The position numbers were made by a program, and so were the translations under genes. A stretch of DNA of 64,000 nucleotides from Acinetobacter sp. WCHAc010034 (lineage in GTDB: Bacteria > Pseudomonadota > Gammaproteobacteria > Pseudomonadales > Moraxellaceae). The number at the start of each line of letters is the position of its first letter. Position 1 is the stretch's first letter. Below, piece after piece: positions 50,445-56,780 of this stretch. The notes beneath the pieces are model-generated. The model searched no databases. It saw nothing but the letters and a program-made list of their open reading frames with translations, and was not told the DNA's origin. The stretch is taken from NCBI RefSeq assembly GCF_001696615.3, contig NZ_CP032279.1, positions 2,108,001 through 2,172,000 on the forward strand. Reading direction: 5' to 3'.

Positions 50445-50714
50445 CGATTAACTCCGAATGATTTGAAATTTAGGCAAACTGAATTTTTATTGTCTTCAAG
50501 ACTAGCATTAAAATGTGCAAAAAGGCGTCAAAACCTGAAAGTTTAAAAAAGATGAAAAAGCGGCTTTTATGCATAGCGCTTTCCCCGTATCTGCTATTCC
50601 AAGAGATTGAATGAATGGATGTTCATTTGAGCGTGAACTGGCTATGATCATAAAAGCGCTTGATAAAAAAGTATGGACTGGCGGATACGCCGCAGCATGG
50701 TGGGAAATAGGCTG

Positions 50715-51581
50715 ATGCAAGACTTGATTTGTTATAAAGAACTTCCAGTGTGGACAGCGCAGAGCATTCCGCAAGGGTTTAAAAATCAGCACAATACCAA
50801 AGCGGGCACTTGGGCTAAGCTAAAGATTTATCAAGGGGAGCTGCATTTTGCCATGCTGGAAGAATCGGGCGACCTAAAATCTGAGCATATCTTTAGCCTT
50901 GAGCAGCAGCCACCGTTTATTCAGCCTCAAGCATGGCACAAGATTGTTTCGGCCAGCGATGACATAGAATGCCAGCTGCAATTTTACTGCACCCCGCAGG
51001 ATTATTTTTATAAGAAATATCAGCTTTCACCTACGCACTCGGAAATCTTGGCTGCTGCGCCGTATTTGCAAGGCGGCCGGGCTTTAGATGTCGGCTGCGG
51101 GCAGGGGCGTAATGCACTGTATTTAAATCAGCAGGGTTTTGAGGTCGATGCTTGGGATGTCAACGCAAACAGTTTGCAAAAGCTGCAGCAGATTATAGAT
51201 GCCGAAGGCATTGAAAAGATTCATCTGCAGCAGCGTGACCTCAATGCTGACCCAAGCATTACAGGCACATACGACTTTATTTGCTGTACGGTCGTGATGA
51301 TGTTTTTAGAAGCCCCAACGGTGAAGCCTTTGATTGCGCAGATGCAGCAAGCCACAAATGTAAATGGGTTTAACTTGATTGTCTGTGCGATGGATACCGA
51401 TGATATTCCTGCGCAGCCTGACTTTCCATTTGCTTTTAAAACAGGAGAGCTAAGCGCGCTGTACGAGGGCTGGAACATTGTGAAATACAATGAAGATGTC
51501 GGGGAGCTGCATCGGGTGGATGCAGAAGGAAAGCGGATTAAACAGCATTTTGCGACCTTGTTGGCGCAGCGGGTTTTATAA
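50715..51581 (+). CDS. tehB: SAM-dependent methyltransferase TehB with N-terminal DUF1971 domain
   Basis: This 288-aa protein has an N-terminal DUF1971/TehB-specific domain (LPVWTAQSIPQGFKNQHNTK, residues about 10-90) and a C-terminal class I methyltransferase with motif I GGRALDVGCGQGRNALYL (about 121-138). TehB confers tellurite resistance by methylation and may act on other oxyanions. ATG 50715 gives the family start; a frame open 14 codons earlier is rejected. The retron region begins just downstream, convergent. Confidence 0.9.
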   Translation: MQDLICYKELPVWTAQSIPQGFKNQHNTKAGTWAKLKIYQGELHFAMLEESGDLKSEHIFSLEQQPPFIQPQAWHKIVSASDDIECQLQFYCTPQDYFYKKYQLSPTHSEILAAAPYLQGGRALDVGCGQGRNALYLNQQGFEVDAWDVNANSLQKLQQIIDAEGIEKIHLQQRDLNADPSITGTYDFICCTVVMMFLEAPTVKPLIAQMQQATNVNGFNLIVCAMDTDDIPAQPDFPFAFKTGELSALYEGWNIVKYNEDVGELHRVDAEGKRIKQHFATLLAQRVL

Positions 51582-51598: not shown

Positions 51599-52385
51599 TT
51601 ATTTTTTTAAATTTTTAGCTATTTGATAGAAGCTAAAACAAAGATATCTAAATTTACCTAAATATATTTTGTTGCCTAATGGTTTAATAATTCTGTGAAA
51701 GAAAATAAATTTTCCGTACTCACTTTTAGATTCTATCCCATCATTTGAAATGTTGAAGATCTTTCCATCAATTTTTTCATCGAGTAGATGTGATGAATAA
51801 AGATATTCAATTCCAGGGTAATGCCCTATGAGCTGAACCAAATACAGGTTTTTATACACATGTGCAGTTCTTATAGTATTTTTTAATAATTTTTTCTCTT
51901 TGTAATCTTTGGAATTTTTATTTGCACAATTAAAAACATTGTTTCCAGCTGGATCATTGTCCACAAAAATAATTGTTGGATATCTTGGGATATCTACTGA
52001 CTTATATATTTCTAAATAAATTTTAATAAAATGACATAAATCACCAGTACCTCCTGAAATTTTCAAAGGTTGGGAAAATGATTTTAAATGTTTTTCAAAG
52101 CTAATTAATTCAAAATTATCTTTTTTAAATAGTGTCGTATTTCTTAAGTAGTTGTAAATGTGTTGTGGGTCGGTTTTTCCCTCACAGATAATTTTAATTT
52201 TGGAGTGATGTACAAAATGAATGTGAAATAATAGCTCTATGTATGATTTACTAAAACCTTTTAAATTTTTGTAAATTTGTAATGGTTCTAAATCTTTATC
52301 AATTGCGTTAGTGTGGGAATAGTCAAGTTGCTTAATATTTTTAATATGATTCGCTATTCCAATTAATGATTTTTCACTAAAATCA
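51599..52385 (-). pseudogene. Retron RT-TOPRIM protein, C-terminal TOPRIM fragment
   Basis: This is the 3' part of the reverse transcriptase gene split by the IS at 52395-53432. The restored frame enters at IDFSEKSLIGIANHI. It contains a TOPRIM domain with the conserved Glu in KIICEGKTDPQHIYNYL and the DxD in TIIFVDNDPAGNNVF. TOPRIM domains cleave or bind nucleic acid with metal ions. In Ec67-type retrons this domain is fused to the RT and is thought to be the toxic effector. Without its N-terminal half and promoter it is probably silent. Confidence 0.88.
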
Positions 52386-52394
52386 ATACCCAAG

Positions 52395-53432
52395 GGCTTT
52401 GTTGCACAAACCTATCTGTAAAGGCTTTTTCAGCGATATAATTTTCAAATGAAGAAGCCTATACACAAAATCTATCGCACAACCAATTGGCCCGCATATA
52501 ACCGAGCACTCATGAGTCGCGGAAATATTGCCATTTGGTTTGATCCTGCTACGCAATGGTATGCTCCATCAAAAGGCAAACAAGGGCGAAATCAAACCTA
52601 CTCCGACGCAGCTATCCAATGCTGCTTAATGATTAAATCCTTATTCCGTCTATCTTTACGTATGGTCACTGGCTTTGTGCAAAGTCTGATTAAACTTTGT
52701 GGATTAAATTGGACCGCACCAGATTACAGTACGCTTTGCAGAAGACAAAAACATATTGATATTGCGATTAATTATCAAAAAAGCAGTGGTGGGCTTAACT
52801 TGCTGGTAGACTCTACCGGTCTAAAGTTTTTAGGTGAAGGTGAATGGAAAAGGAAGAAACATGGACCTGAATATCGTCGCCAATGGCGTAAACTTCATAT
52901 TGGTATAGATGCTGAAACCCTTCAAATACGCGCCATTCAACTCACTACAAATAATGTGAGTGATTCACAAGTGCTTGGTGATTTACTCGATCAGATTCCA
53001 CAAGATGAGCAGATTGACTCTGTTTATACCGATGGAGCTTATGACACCAAGCAATGCCGTCAGGTCATTGCAGATCGGCAAGCGCATGCGGTGATTCCAC
53101 CTAGAAAAAATGCGAAACCATGGAAAGATACAAAGATCAGCTCGCTAGCGCGAAATGAATTACTTCGAACAGTTAAACGTTTAGGCAGGACATTATGGAA
53201 AAAATGGTCCGGCTATCATTGCCGAAGTTTGGTCGAAACTAAGATGCATTGCATCAAATTATTGGGGGATAAACTCAGTGCAAGAAAATTTGATAGCCAA
53301 GTCAATGAAATTCATGCACGTGTAGCAGTCCTCAACAGATTTACGGAATTAGGTCGACCACTTACCCAAGTTACGCCTTAAATTTGGCTCAATTAGGGGG
53401 CTTTGTATTTCAAATCTTTGTGCAACAAAGCC
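52395..53432 (+). mobile_element. IS5-family (IS903-group-like) element, 1038 bp, with 9-bp target duplication
   Basis: The terminal inverted repeats are GGCTTTGTTGCACAAA and its complement TTTGTGCAACAAAGCC. The 9-bp direct repeat ATACCCAAG occurs at 52386-52394 and 53433-53441, the duplication length known for the IS903 group. One intact transposase gene fills the element. The match of the duplication is perfect, so the insertion is probably recent. Confidence 0.95.
52449..53381 (+). CDS. IS5-family transposase
   Basis: This 310-aa DDE transposase has the catalytic Asp residues in LLVDSTGLKF (about residue 118) and VYTDGAYDTKQC (about 195), and the Glu in SLVETKMHCIKLLG (about 271). The N-terminus KIYRTTNWPAYNRALMSRG is typical for the IS903/IS1031-like branch. 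It fills the IS, in the opposite direction to the retron gene it interrupts. Confidence 0.95.
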   Translation: MKKPIHKIYRTTNWPAYNRALMSRGNIAIWFDPATQWYAPSKGKQGRNQTYSDAAIQCCLMIKSLFRLSLRMVTGFVQSLIKLCGLNWTAPDYSTLCRRQKHIDIAINYQKSSGGLNLLVDSTGLKFLGEGEWKRKKHGPEYRRQWRKLHIGIDAETLQIRAIQLTTNNVSDSQVLGDLLDQIPQDEQIDSVYTDGAYDTKQCRQVIADRQAHAVIPPRKNAKPWKDTKISSLARNELLRTVKRLGRTLWKKWSGYHCRSLVETKMHCIKLLGDKLSARKFDSQVNEIHARVAVLNRFTELGRPLTQVTP

Positions 53433-54343
53433 ATACCCAAGGAATGATAGGCAGATCTTTCATATAACCCTGATTTACAATATTTATCTATCATTGCTCT
53501 TGTGTATTTATAATAGTTTTTATTAATGTTTGCCTTTTTATTAACTGTTAAGCCAGTAACTTGTTGCCTTTGGTATTGATCTCTAATTATAATTTTATCT
53601 TTGTTTATTTTAAATTGACATGAATTTATAGTGTTTATAAGAGTTTTATTTAGAGTCCAGATATTTCCATTTTTTTGAGCAATATCTTGTGGAATTGAAT
53701 TTGTAGTAAACGAAAAAGTTAGATCGTCAGAATATCTTGAGTAAATAAATTTTTTTCTTTTGGAAAGTTTGAATAAACGTTCATCTAAGATAGTACCTAA
53801 AAAGTTTGATATTATAGGTGAACAAGGACTACCTTGTGGAAGATAGCTATCATTTGTATTAGGATCTCTATAACAAGCGATCTGAGCGATAGCAATACAA
53901 ATATCATAATTTATTTTTAAGTTTTTGTTCTTATGAAAAAAACCTACAATTCGACTAAATGTTATGTTTGTAAAGAAATCTTCTAAATCTATATTGATGA
54001 CTAATTTTGATTTTGTATGTAATTTTGCATTTTCATGAAAACCATATTTTTGGTCGGAATCTTTTCGGTAACTATAACAAAGCTGAGTTTTTCGAAAGTT
54101 TATTTCATCAAATATATCATTTAATAACAAAGCTAATTTTTGCTGTATAAATTTTAATTGTTTATTTGGTGCTAAAATTTCTCTAGGGGAACCATTCTTT
54201 TTATATATAATTGCCTTCTTATAATTGTTATGAATTGGCTGAGAGTATAGTGTGAAACAGAGTAATTTATAATCAAGAATTAGTAAGTTAGCTAAATCCT
54301 GTCTATTTTGGCATTGTTTTAATAGTTGTAAATTTGAAGACAT
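53433..54343 (-). pseudogene. Retron reverse transcriptase, N-terminal RT fragment
   Basis: This fragment carries nearly the whole RT domain. INIDLEDFFTNI (about residues 117-128) holds the first catalytic Asp, LPQGSPCSP is at 168-176, YSRYSDDLTF has the YxDD box at 204-207, and VTGLTVNKKANI (about 264) matches the VTG motif characteristic of retron RTs. Translation now ends 40 bp inside the IS, giving 316 residues. With the IS removed the frame runs into the TOPRIM fragment for a 565-aa protein, close to the Ec67 RT (586 aa). A retron RNA-like region lies immediately upstream. The RT may still be made, without its effector domain. Confidence 0.9.
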
Positions 54344-54346
54344 ATT

Positions 54347-54541
54347 AATAAGCTATCTGTGAAAACTCTTATGGCGTATAACCTAAGCAATCTCCAAGAA
54401 AAGAAGAAAGCCTCAAATAAGTATAAAAAATTTCTATTAAGAAAAAATCTAAGAAGATAATAAATTTTAGCTCATTACCTGACCCTTAGAAATCAGATTG
54501 CGAAACACAATCCATGAATCTATTCACAGATAGCCTATTGA
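54347..54541 (-). ncRNA. Retron msr-msd template RNA (Ec67-like), upstream of the RT
   Basis: On the minus strand the segment opens with AGGCTATCTGTGAA (54536-54523) and closes with its complement TTCACAGATAGCTT (54363-54350) just before the RT start; 13 of 14 positions pair. This is the a1/a2 inverted repeat that bounds retron ncRNAs. Inside, GATTGTG-TTT-CGCAATC (about 54511-54495) is a stem with a TTT loop, similar to the GGTTGTG-AAT-CGCAACC stem of the Ec67 msr. The msd hairpin and the branching G are not certain from eye inspection. Confidence 0.75.
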
Positions 54542-54550
54542 AAATAATAT

Positions 54551-54582
54551 AAAAAATCCTCGCATAAAGCGAGGATTTTTTT
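54551..54582 (-). terminator. Terminator of the fadA 3'-end fragment
   Basis: AAATCCTCGC-ATAAA-GCGAGGATTT with flanking A and T runs. It is the diverged counterpart of the fadA terminator at 55560-55586. Confidence 0.88.
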
Positions 54583-54598
54583 ATATCTTAGTGTTTAA

Positions 54599-55442
<844 letters not shown>

Positions 55443-55586: not shown

Positions 55587-55607
55587 ATCTATCTCAGTGC
55601 TTAATCA

Positions 55608-56780
<1,173 letters not shown>

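What the first reader, a model, noticed from the sequence alone, without database searches (positions are those of the whole stretch)
51599..54541. Ec67-type retron (RT fused to TOPRIM) disabled by an IS5-family insertion between its two domains
The RT half (YSDD, VTGLTVN) and the TOPRIM half (EGKTD, DNDPAG) lie on either side of a complete IS with perfect ends and a 9-bp duplication. Removing the IS and one duplicate joins both halves in frame as a 565-aa protein. The insertion leaves the RNA and RT intact but cuts off the presumed toxic domain. This may be selection against an effector, or simply chance.
Basis: partly seen in the sequence, partly recalled or inferred. Interest (0 to 1): 0.85.

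Follow-up and report, generated by a model that had tools for sequence, protein, structure and literature searches.

The report
Antiphage retron broken by insertion sequence
A known kind of bacterial anti-virus system, a reverse transcriptase fused to a self-poisoning enzyme, has been cut in two in this Acinetobacter chromosome by a jumping gene and is probably dead; the cut seems to lie inside the reverse transcriptase rather than neatly between its two parts.

Summary
Window 51599-54541 (minus strand) carries a retron RNA and an RT-TOPRIM gene of the Ec67/Eco2 kind, split by a complete 1038-bp IS5-family element with perfect 16-bp ends and a 9-bp duplication. Tested apart, the halves match consecutive stretches of the same PADLOC models and of Eco2. 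Their lengths add up to 565 aa, the length of intact relatives: Acinetobacter kookii at the same chromosomal site, and P0009, 96-97% identical to both halves. All 40 residues invariant in 69 aligned relatives are kept, so the insertion is probably recent. Two points need changing. First, the IS is not between two domains: in a model of the A. kookii protein it falls in a thumb loop, and 8 of 12 stand-alone retron RT structures align to residue 357-365, so about 57 RT residues are cut off. 'RT intact' is not supported. The detached piece nearly equals a toxic Eco2 fragment (S300-S586), but has only a TTG start and no clear ribosome site. Second, selection against the effector is not shown: the retron is AT-rich, like the surroundings of all six identical IS copies here, and a relative has a related IS in another gene of the same slot. 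Ordinary decay is likeliest.

The parts
54347..54539 (-). retron non-coding RNA (msr-msd) with a1/a2 inverted repeats at its ends (arms 54512-54539 and 54347-54374)
   Evidence: I1; z -7.0; a1, msr and a2 nearly identical in A. kookii
54496..54512 (-). msr hairpin GATTGTG-TTT-CGCAATC
   Evidence: sequence; identical in A. kookii; similar hairpins upstream of the four more distant genus homologues L011-L014
53433..54343 (-). 5' piece of the RT-TOPRIM gene: 303 codons plus 2 bases; its ORF runs 13 codons into the IS and ends at 53393
52395..53432 (+). IS5-family insertion sequence (IS17-like), 1038 bp, 16-bp perfect inverted ends
52449..53381 (+). transposase ORF, 310 aa
52386..52394 (.). target-site duplication, copy 1 (ATACCCAAG)
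53433..53441 (.). target-site duplication, copy 2 (ATACCCAAG)
51599..52385 (-). 3' piece of the gene: last RT thumb helices and the TOPRIM effector; 261 whole codons; only start upstream of the TOPRIM core is TTG at 52391-52393 in the duplication
54551..54581 (.). terminator-like hairpin between the fadA fragment and the retron RNA
   Evidence: also in A. kookii
54598..54802 (-). duplicate of the 3' end of fadA (91% identical to 55607-55811)
54819..55442 (-). bacterial PH-domain gene (bPH_1) between fadA and the retron
55608..56780 (-). fadA, edge of the variable slot
50673..51581 (+). TehB-like gene, other edge of the slot

Best explanation
This is a type I-C (Ec67/Eco2-like) anti-phage retron broken by transposition, probably recent, of an IS5-family, IS17-like element that has six identical copies in this genome. 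Before the insertion (inferred from relatives and from Eco2 work) the RT copied the RNA into msDNA, RT-TOPRIM and msDNA formed an inactive complex, and phage infection released the TOPRIM RNase. Now the first piece codes for RT residues 1-303 plus 13 IS residues and lacks the last ~57 RT residues (thumb helices) and the effector; the second piece has no ATG or GTG start before the TOPRIM core and no clear Shine-Dalgarno site. Defence is therefore most likely lost; whether any msDNA is still made is open. Shown: anatomy, homology, intact relatives. Shown in a model only: position in the thumb. Inferred: loss of function. The insertion most likely reflects AT-rich target DNA plus dispensability of an accessory defence gene in a variable slot behind fadA.
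For: Anatomy. Family. Intact copies: A. kookii 565 aa, same site between fadA and the TehB gene; P0009, RT 291/303 and TOPRIM 253/261 identical; P0127, a 282-aa piece with the uninterrupted junction of this allele. Six full-length 100% identical IS copies, 4 of 6 with 9-bp duplications. Thumb position. In-frame stop 7 codons upstream of the TTG. AT-rich target: halves 26.0 and 26.1% G+C, window 45.1%; 500-bp flanks of the six IS copies 26.4-37.0%. Related IS (84%) with perfect 9-bp duplication in a different slot gene of G115. Eco2 mechanism: PMC12405507, Results section read.
Against: No expression, msDNA or phage data. The thumb assignment rests on a model of the A. kookii protein (mean pLDDT 88, pTM 0.56; block means 70 at residues 301-310, 60-69 at 321-340). 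The 8 structure rows that reach residue 357-365 have rmsd 7.8-9.5 A, the range gives only first and last aligned residue, and 4 of 12 stand-alone retron RT rows stop at 268-270. A 303-residue RT might keep some activity, and TTG can start translation. AT-richness was compared with the window only, not with the whole genome. Raw reads were not available.
Confidence: 0.87

Rival explanations
1. Effector shedding by selection: the insertion was favoured because it separates the costly RNase domain, leaving RNA and RT to make msDNA without a toxin.
For: The detached piece nearly equals Eco2 S300-S586, toxic in E. coli while the full fusion is not. RT-only relatives exist, e.g. P0058 (339 aa, Acinetobacter sp. 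YH16038) and P0125 (306 aa, A. nosocomialis).
Against: The cut removes thumb helices of the RT too, so it is not an effector-only lesion. One event carries no statistic. AT-rich DNA explains the site as well. Some short relatives may be cut by contig ends; TOPRIM-side pieces also exist (P0127-P0129). In the genus the five other genomes with this retron kind have it in one open frame.
Confidence: 0.15
2. Split but working: truncated RT with msDNA and a TTG-started TOPRIM protein act in trans, as in retrons with separate effectors.
For: Second piece is open, keeps all 8 TOPRIM-side invariant residues, and starts with TTG at the right place.
Against: No clear ribosome site near the TTG (read by eye); thumb helices lie on the wrong piece; the equivalent free Eco2 fragment is toxic, so strong expression in a living strain is unlikely; promoter-like sites in the region are not above chance (12 found, 16.5 expected).
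Confidence: 0.03
3. Assembly artefact: the IS was placed here wrongly because six identical copies exist.
For: Six identical copies in the assembly.
Against: Perfect 9-bp duplication specific to this site, contig of 3.63 Mb, halves in frame with intact relatives.
Confidence: 0.02

Closest known systems
Retron Ec67 / Eco2 (type I-C RT-TOPRIM), PDB 9lm3, 9i2f, 9s1f
   Same: Domain order, RT and TOPRIM signature residues, upstream RNA with a1/a2 and a short msr hairpin; 30-33% identity of the A. kookii homologue over the whole chain
   Different: 565 instead of about 586 aa; here split by an IS in the thumb; chromosomal slot behind fadA
Intact homologue of Acinetobacter kookii ANC 4667 (NZ_FMYO01000016.1)
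   Same: Same site, orientation and RNA; RT 225/303 and TOPRIM 186/260 identical
   Different: Uninterrupted; no bPH gene or fadA fragment between fadA and retron
IS17-like elements of the IS5 family
   Same: Transposase family and size; among the 15 listed of 547 plasmid records, up to 97.9% identical to an unnamed IS5-family element and 93.6-94.5% to those annotated IS17 family
   Different: Not identical to any listed record

Membership tests
Type I-C retron (RT-TOPRIM, Ec67/Eco2 kind) | RT with retron signature (NAxxH, YxDD, VTG; motif names as in PMC12405507) | tested here: met
   NAKLH, YSDD, VTGLTVN; 32 of 32 invariant RT-side residues kept; PADLOC
Type I-C retron (RT-TOPRIM, Ec67/Eco2 kind) | TOPRIM effector of this family with its acidic residues | tested here: met
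   EGKTD, DND, GIE; 8 of 8 invariant residues kept; PADLOC and Eco2 matches
Type I-C retron (RT-TOPRIM, Ec67/Eco2 kind) | RT and TOPRIM in one uninterrupted protein | tested here: not met
   Split by the IS. It is filed as the broken remnant of such a retron, not as a complete member; A. kookii and P0009 meet the feature
Type I-C retron (RT-TOPRIM, Ec67/Eco2 kind) | msr-msd RNA with a1/a2 repeats upstream of the RT | tested here: met
   no Rfam family matched
Type I-C retron (RT-TOPRIM, Ec67/Eco2 kind) | makes msDNA; protects against phage | not testable with these tools
   needs the strain or a clone
IS5 family | DDE transposase of the family | tested here: met
   Pfam DDE_Tnp_1_5 E=3e-40; similar plasmid records annotated IS5 family
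IS5 family | terminal inverted repeats and short target duplication | tested here: met
   16-bp perfect ends, 9-bp duplication
IS17 (one named element) | near-identity to the named element | tested here: inconclusive
   93.6-94.5% to the listed records annotated 'IS17 family'; the reference sequence itself was not at hand

The most novel reading that the evidence does not exclude
The stretch at the RT thumb just before TOPRIM is a natural breaking and exchange point of these retrons: effectors are swapped there between relatives (P0006, P0007 and P0011 combine an RT of one type with a TOPRIM of the window's type, changing over around residues 270-320) or shed there (P0058), and the IS landed in the same seam, leaving a shortened RT that may still make msDNA as an orphan element.
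Probability: 0.12. Interest if true: 0.5.

Novelty: new member of a known kind. Interest (0 to 1): 0.3.

Why it matters
It is a clean natural break of an RT-TOPRIM retron, with an uninterrupted homologue at the same chromosomal site in A. kookii and a 96-97% identical one in the databases. The cut falls within a few residues of where Eco2 researchers cut to make a toxic free TOPRIM fragment, so it poses a testable question: does a retron RT without its last thumb helices still make msDNA, and is the free effector piece silent? It also shows that the site behind fadA in Acinetobacter takes in varied genes, several of defence families, and that these are themselves hit by IS elements.

Tried and rejected
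Pfam has no model that catches the TOPRIM half; PADLOC and PDB sequence comparison did. Rfam at gathering scores found only four tRNAs in the window, so the retron RNA rests on folding and comparison. A scan of viral contigs with alignment A1 used a single pattern and confirmed no relative; of 39 phage records with a match, one covered over 80% of the query, at 31% identity. One genome-contig scan found only A. kookii.

A class sample was less telling than hoped: 28 of 369 genomes match the RT-Toprim model; besides the window, seven matches exceed 235 bits, in open frames of 515-645 aa, but only one of them (G343) matches over TOPRIM as well, and two (G343, G210) show one in-frame TAA. None was followed up, so this sample gives no break rate.

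dN/dS against A. kookii is about 0.09 for each half, but dS is saturated (1.8 and 2.3) and covers time before the insertion, so it says nothing about relaxed constraint after it. The chimeric relatives P0006, P0007, P0011 may be assembly chimeras; their DNA could not be read; and P0002 departs from the A. kookii type only after about residue 360, so a changeover near 300 is not general. P0127 is listed without sources, as the tool does for proteins the window encodes; its letters differ from the window's at a few places and it is only the C-terminal 282 residues. A promoter scan gave nothing above chance. 20 slot proteins were scanned against PADLOC: 7 from 6 loci matched a model at E <= 1e-70; the other 13 had weak or no match, among them the HD-CE, SLFN/AlbA_2, PLD and C17 proteins and one transposase.

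Errors of mine, corrected: the TOPRIM query was in the wrong frame, so its TOPRIM rows are void; one search stopped on a script error and its identity lines are void (its coordinate list was used); the protein identities used gapped rows and are replaced. In one search the starts of L011-L013 were taken too far downstream; one search corrects them. Entry 1 of the notebook gives loose PADLOC positions; those in this report are.

Papers: PMC12405507 outline and the whole Results section read; PMC10568477, PMC12421847, PMC8867640 passages only; others search listings only. A paper on Acinetobacter defence hotspots (Yi et al. 2025, known from a reference list) and Mestre et al. 2020 are not held, so I make no claim that the fadA slot or such a broken retron is unreported.

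Full report
What is there. On the minus strand, from 54539 to 51599, lie a retron RNA, the first piece of an RT-TOPRIM gene, a complete insertion sequence and the second piece of the gene. The IS is 52395-53432, with 16-bp perfect ends and the duplication ATACCCAAG on both sides. Its transposase is an IS5-family DDE enzyme; among the 15 listed of 547 plasmid records the closest is 97.9% identical and annotated IS5 family, and those annotated IS17 family are 93.6-94.5% identical. The genome (3.84 Mb, 13 contigs) holds six full-length copies 100% identical to it (this one included), two more nearly full-length at 91-93%, and further fragments, 18 matches in all; 4 of the 6 identical copies have 9-bp duplications.

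The halves, tested apart. The first piece matches PADLOC RT-Toprim_I-C models PDLC02966 at positions 6-294 (E=6e-109) and PDLC02963 at 2-289; the second matches the same two, PDLC02963 at 298-549 (E=4e-39) and PDLC02966 at 304-552 (E=2e-38). Both match Eco2 chains, RT with E=7e-52 and TOPRIM with E=1e-18. The lengths 911 and 787 nt give 566 codons with stop. Alignment A3 holds A. kookii and 68 of the 120 listed homologues; all 40 of its invariant residues are present in the two pieces, 32 in the first and 8 in the second.

Uninterrupted relatives. A. kookii ANC 4667 carries a 565-aa gene (225/303 and 186/260 identical to the pieces) at the same site, between fadA and the TehB-like gene. P0009, a database cluster of 22 sequences, is 565 aa and 291/303 and 253/261 identical. 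P0127 (282 aa, C-terminal part only, sources not shown) has the uninterrupted junction with the same letters as the window. In the genus, 27 of 175 genomes have some match to the RT half. Five besides the window score above 198 bits; each has the gene in one frame of 565-623 residues that matches RT-Toprim_I-C models from end to end. The weaker RT matches of the other genomes were not typed.

The RNA. The 193-nt region has a1/a2 arms pairing at its ends and folds far better than shuffles (-60.4 against -36.2 kcal/mol, z -7.0). Its a1, msr hairpin and a2 are almost unchanged in A. kookii while the middle varies, and an msr hairpin of similar make with flanking complementary arms precedes the four more distant genus genes. 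The IS leaves it untouched.

Where the cut falls. In an AlphaFold2 model of the A. kookii protein (mean pLDDT 88, pTM 0.56) the site, residue 303/304, lies in the loop 292-307 between helix 275-291 and helix 308-322; TOPRIM's first strand starts at 367. Of the 12 listed stand-alone retron RTs, 8 align up to model residue 357-365 (Ec86 13-311 to 1-363; Eco7 2-309 to 16-357; 9n69 2-308 to 12-363; also 9vhe, 9l7p and three Eco8 rows) with rmsd 7.8-9.5 A; the other 4 stop at 268-270 with rmsd 2.4-2.8 A. The Eco2 paper sets the RT domain at 1-368, with Q329 touching the msr hairpin and R332A abolishing defence; in the alignment residue 304 stands over Eco2 303. So the first piece has most likely lost about 57 RT residues as well as TOPRIM.

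What the second piece could do. In the Eco2 paper free TOPRIM fragments N267-, S300- and N337-S586 inhibit growth of E. coli, while the whole fusion does not. The window's second piece corresponds to Eco2 from about 302. Its frame is closed by a stop 7 codons upstream of its first start, a TTG inside the duplication, with no clear ribosome site nearby. I infer that it is silent.

Why there. Retron halves have 26% G+C, the window 45%; the six identical IS copies lie in DNA of 26.4-37.0% G+C per 500-bp flank; I did not measure the genome as a whole. In G115, whose FadA protein is 99% identical, a gene of the same slot is cut by a related IS (84% identical) with a perfect 9-bp duplication. The stretch behind fadA is variable: of 61 loci (59 hand-picked regions of other genomes, A. 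kookii, the window; the second fadA copy of the own genome left out) 43 have a non-flank ORF of at least 130 aa before the first common flank gene, in 35 clusters; 16 of these ORFs are the bPH gene. Seven of 20 slot proteins scanned match known or candidate defence models at E <= 1e-70: Drt2, AbiU, PD-Lambda-2 B and C, NsnA, HEC-01A, PDC-M03A. A dispensable, AT-rich defence gene in such a slot, hit by an IS with several identical copies, needs no special selection.

Verdict. A real, probably recent, naturally broken type I-C retron; known kind, probably without function.

Noticed in passing
window 54598-54802 and 55607-55811: The 3' end of fadA is duplicated (91%), with a bPH_1 gene between the copies; fadA fragments behind bPH also occur in L042 (G165) and L080 (G021). 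It looks like insertion of a fadA-bPH segment into the fadA end, leaving the old end beside the retron.
   Followed up: partly
L039, L041-L099 (behind fadA): The slot 3' of fadA in Acinetobacter holds varied genes, several of known or candidate defence families.
   Followed up: partly
L058:2017-3055: In G115 an unknown slot gene (cluster C17, about 380 aa in relatives) is cut by a related IS with a perfect 9-bp duplication CTAAAGCTT.
   Followed up: partly
L040 (G000:C13:3120215-3121384): The genome has a second fadBA pair (fadB 99.4%, fadA 98.2% identical at protein level) about 1 Mb away with other neighbours.
   Followed up: no
P0006, P0007, P0011: RT-TOPRIM relatives that look like chimeras of two types, changing over near residues 270-320; real exchange or assembly chimera.
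   Followed up: partly
P0058, P0125, P0126, P0121: RT-only relatives of this retron family, 278-339 aa, ending near or before the thumb; some may be cut by contig ends.
   Followed up: partly
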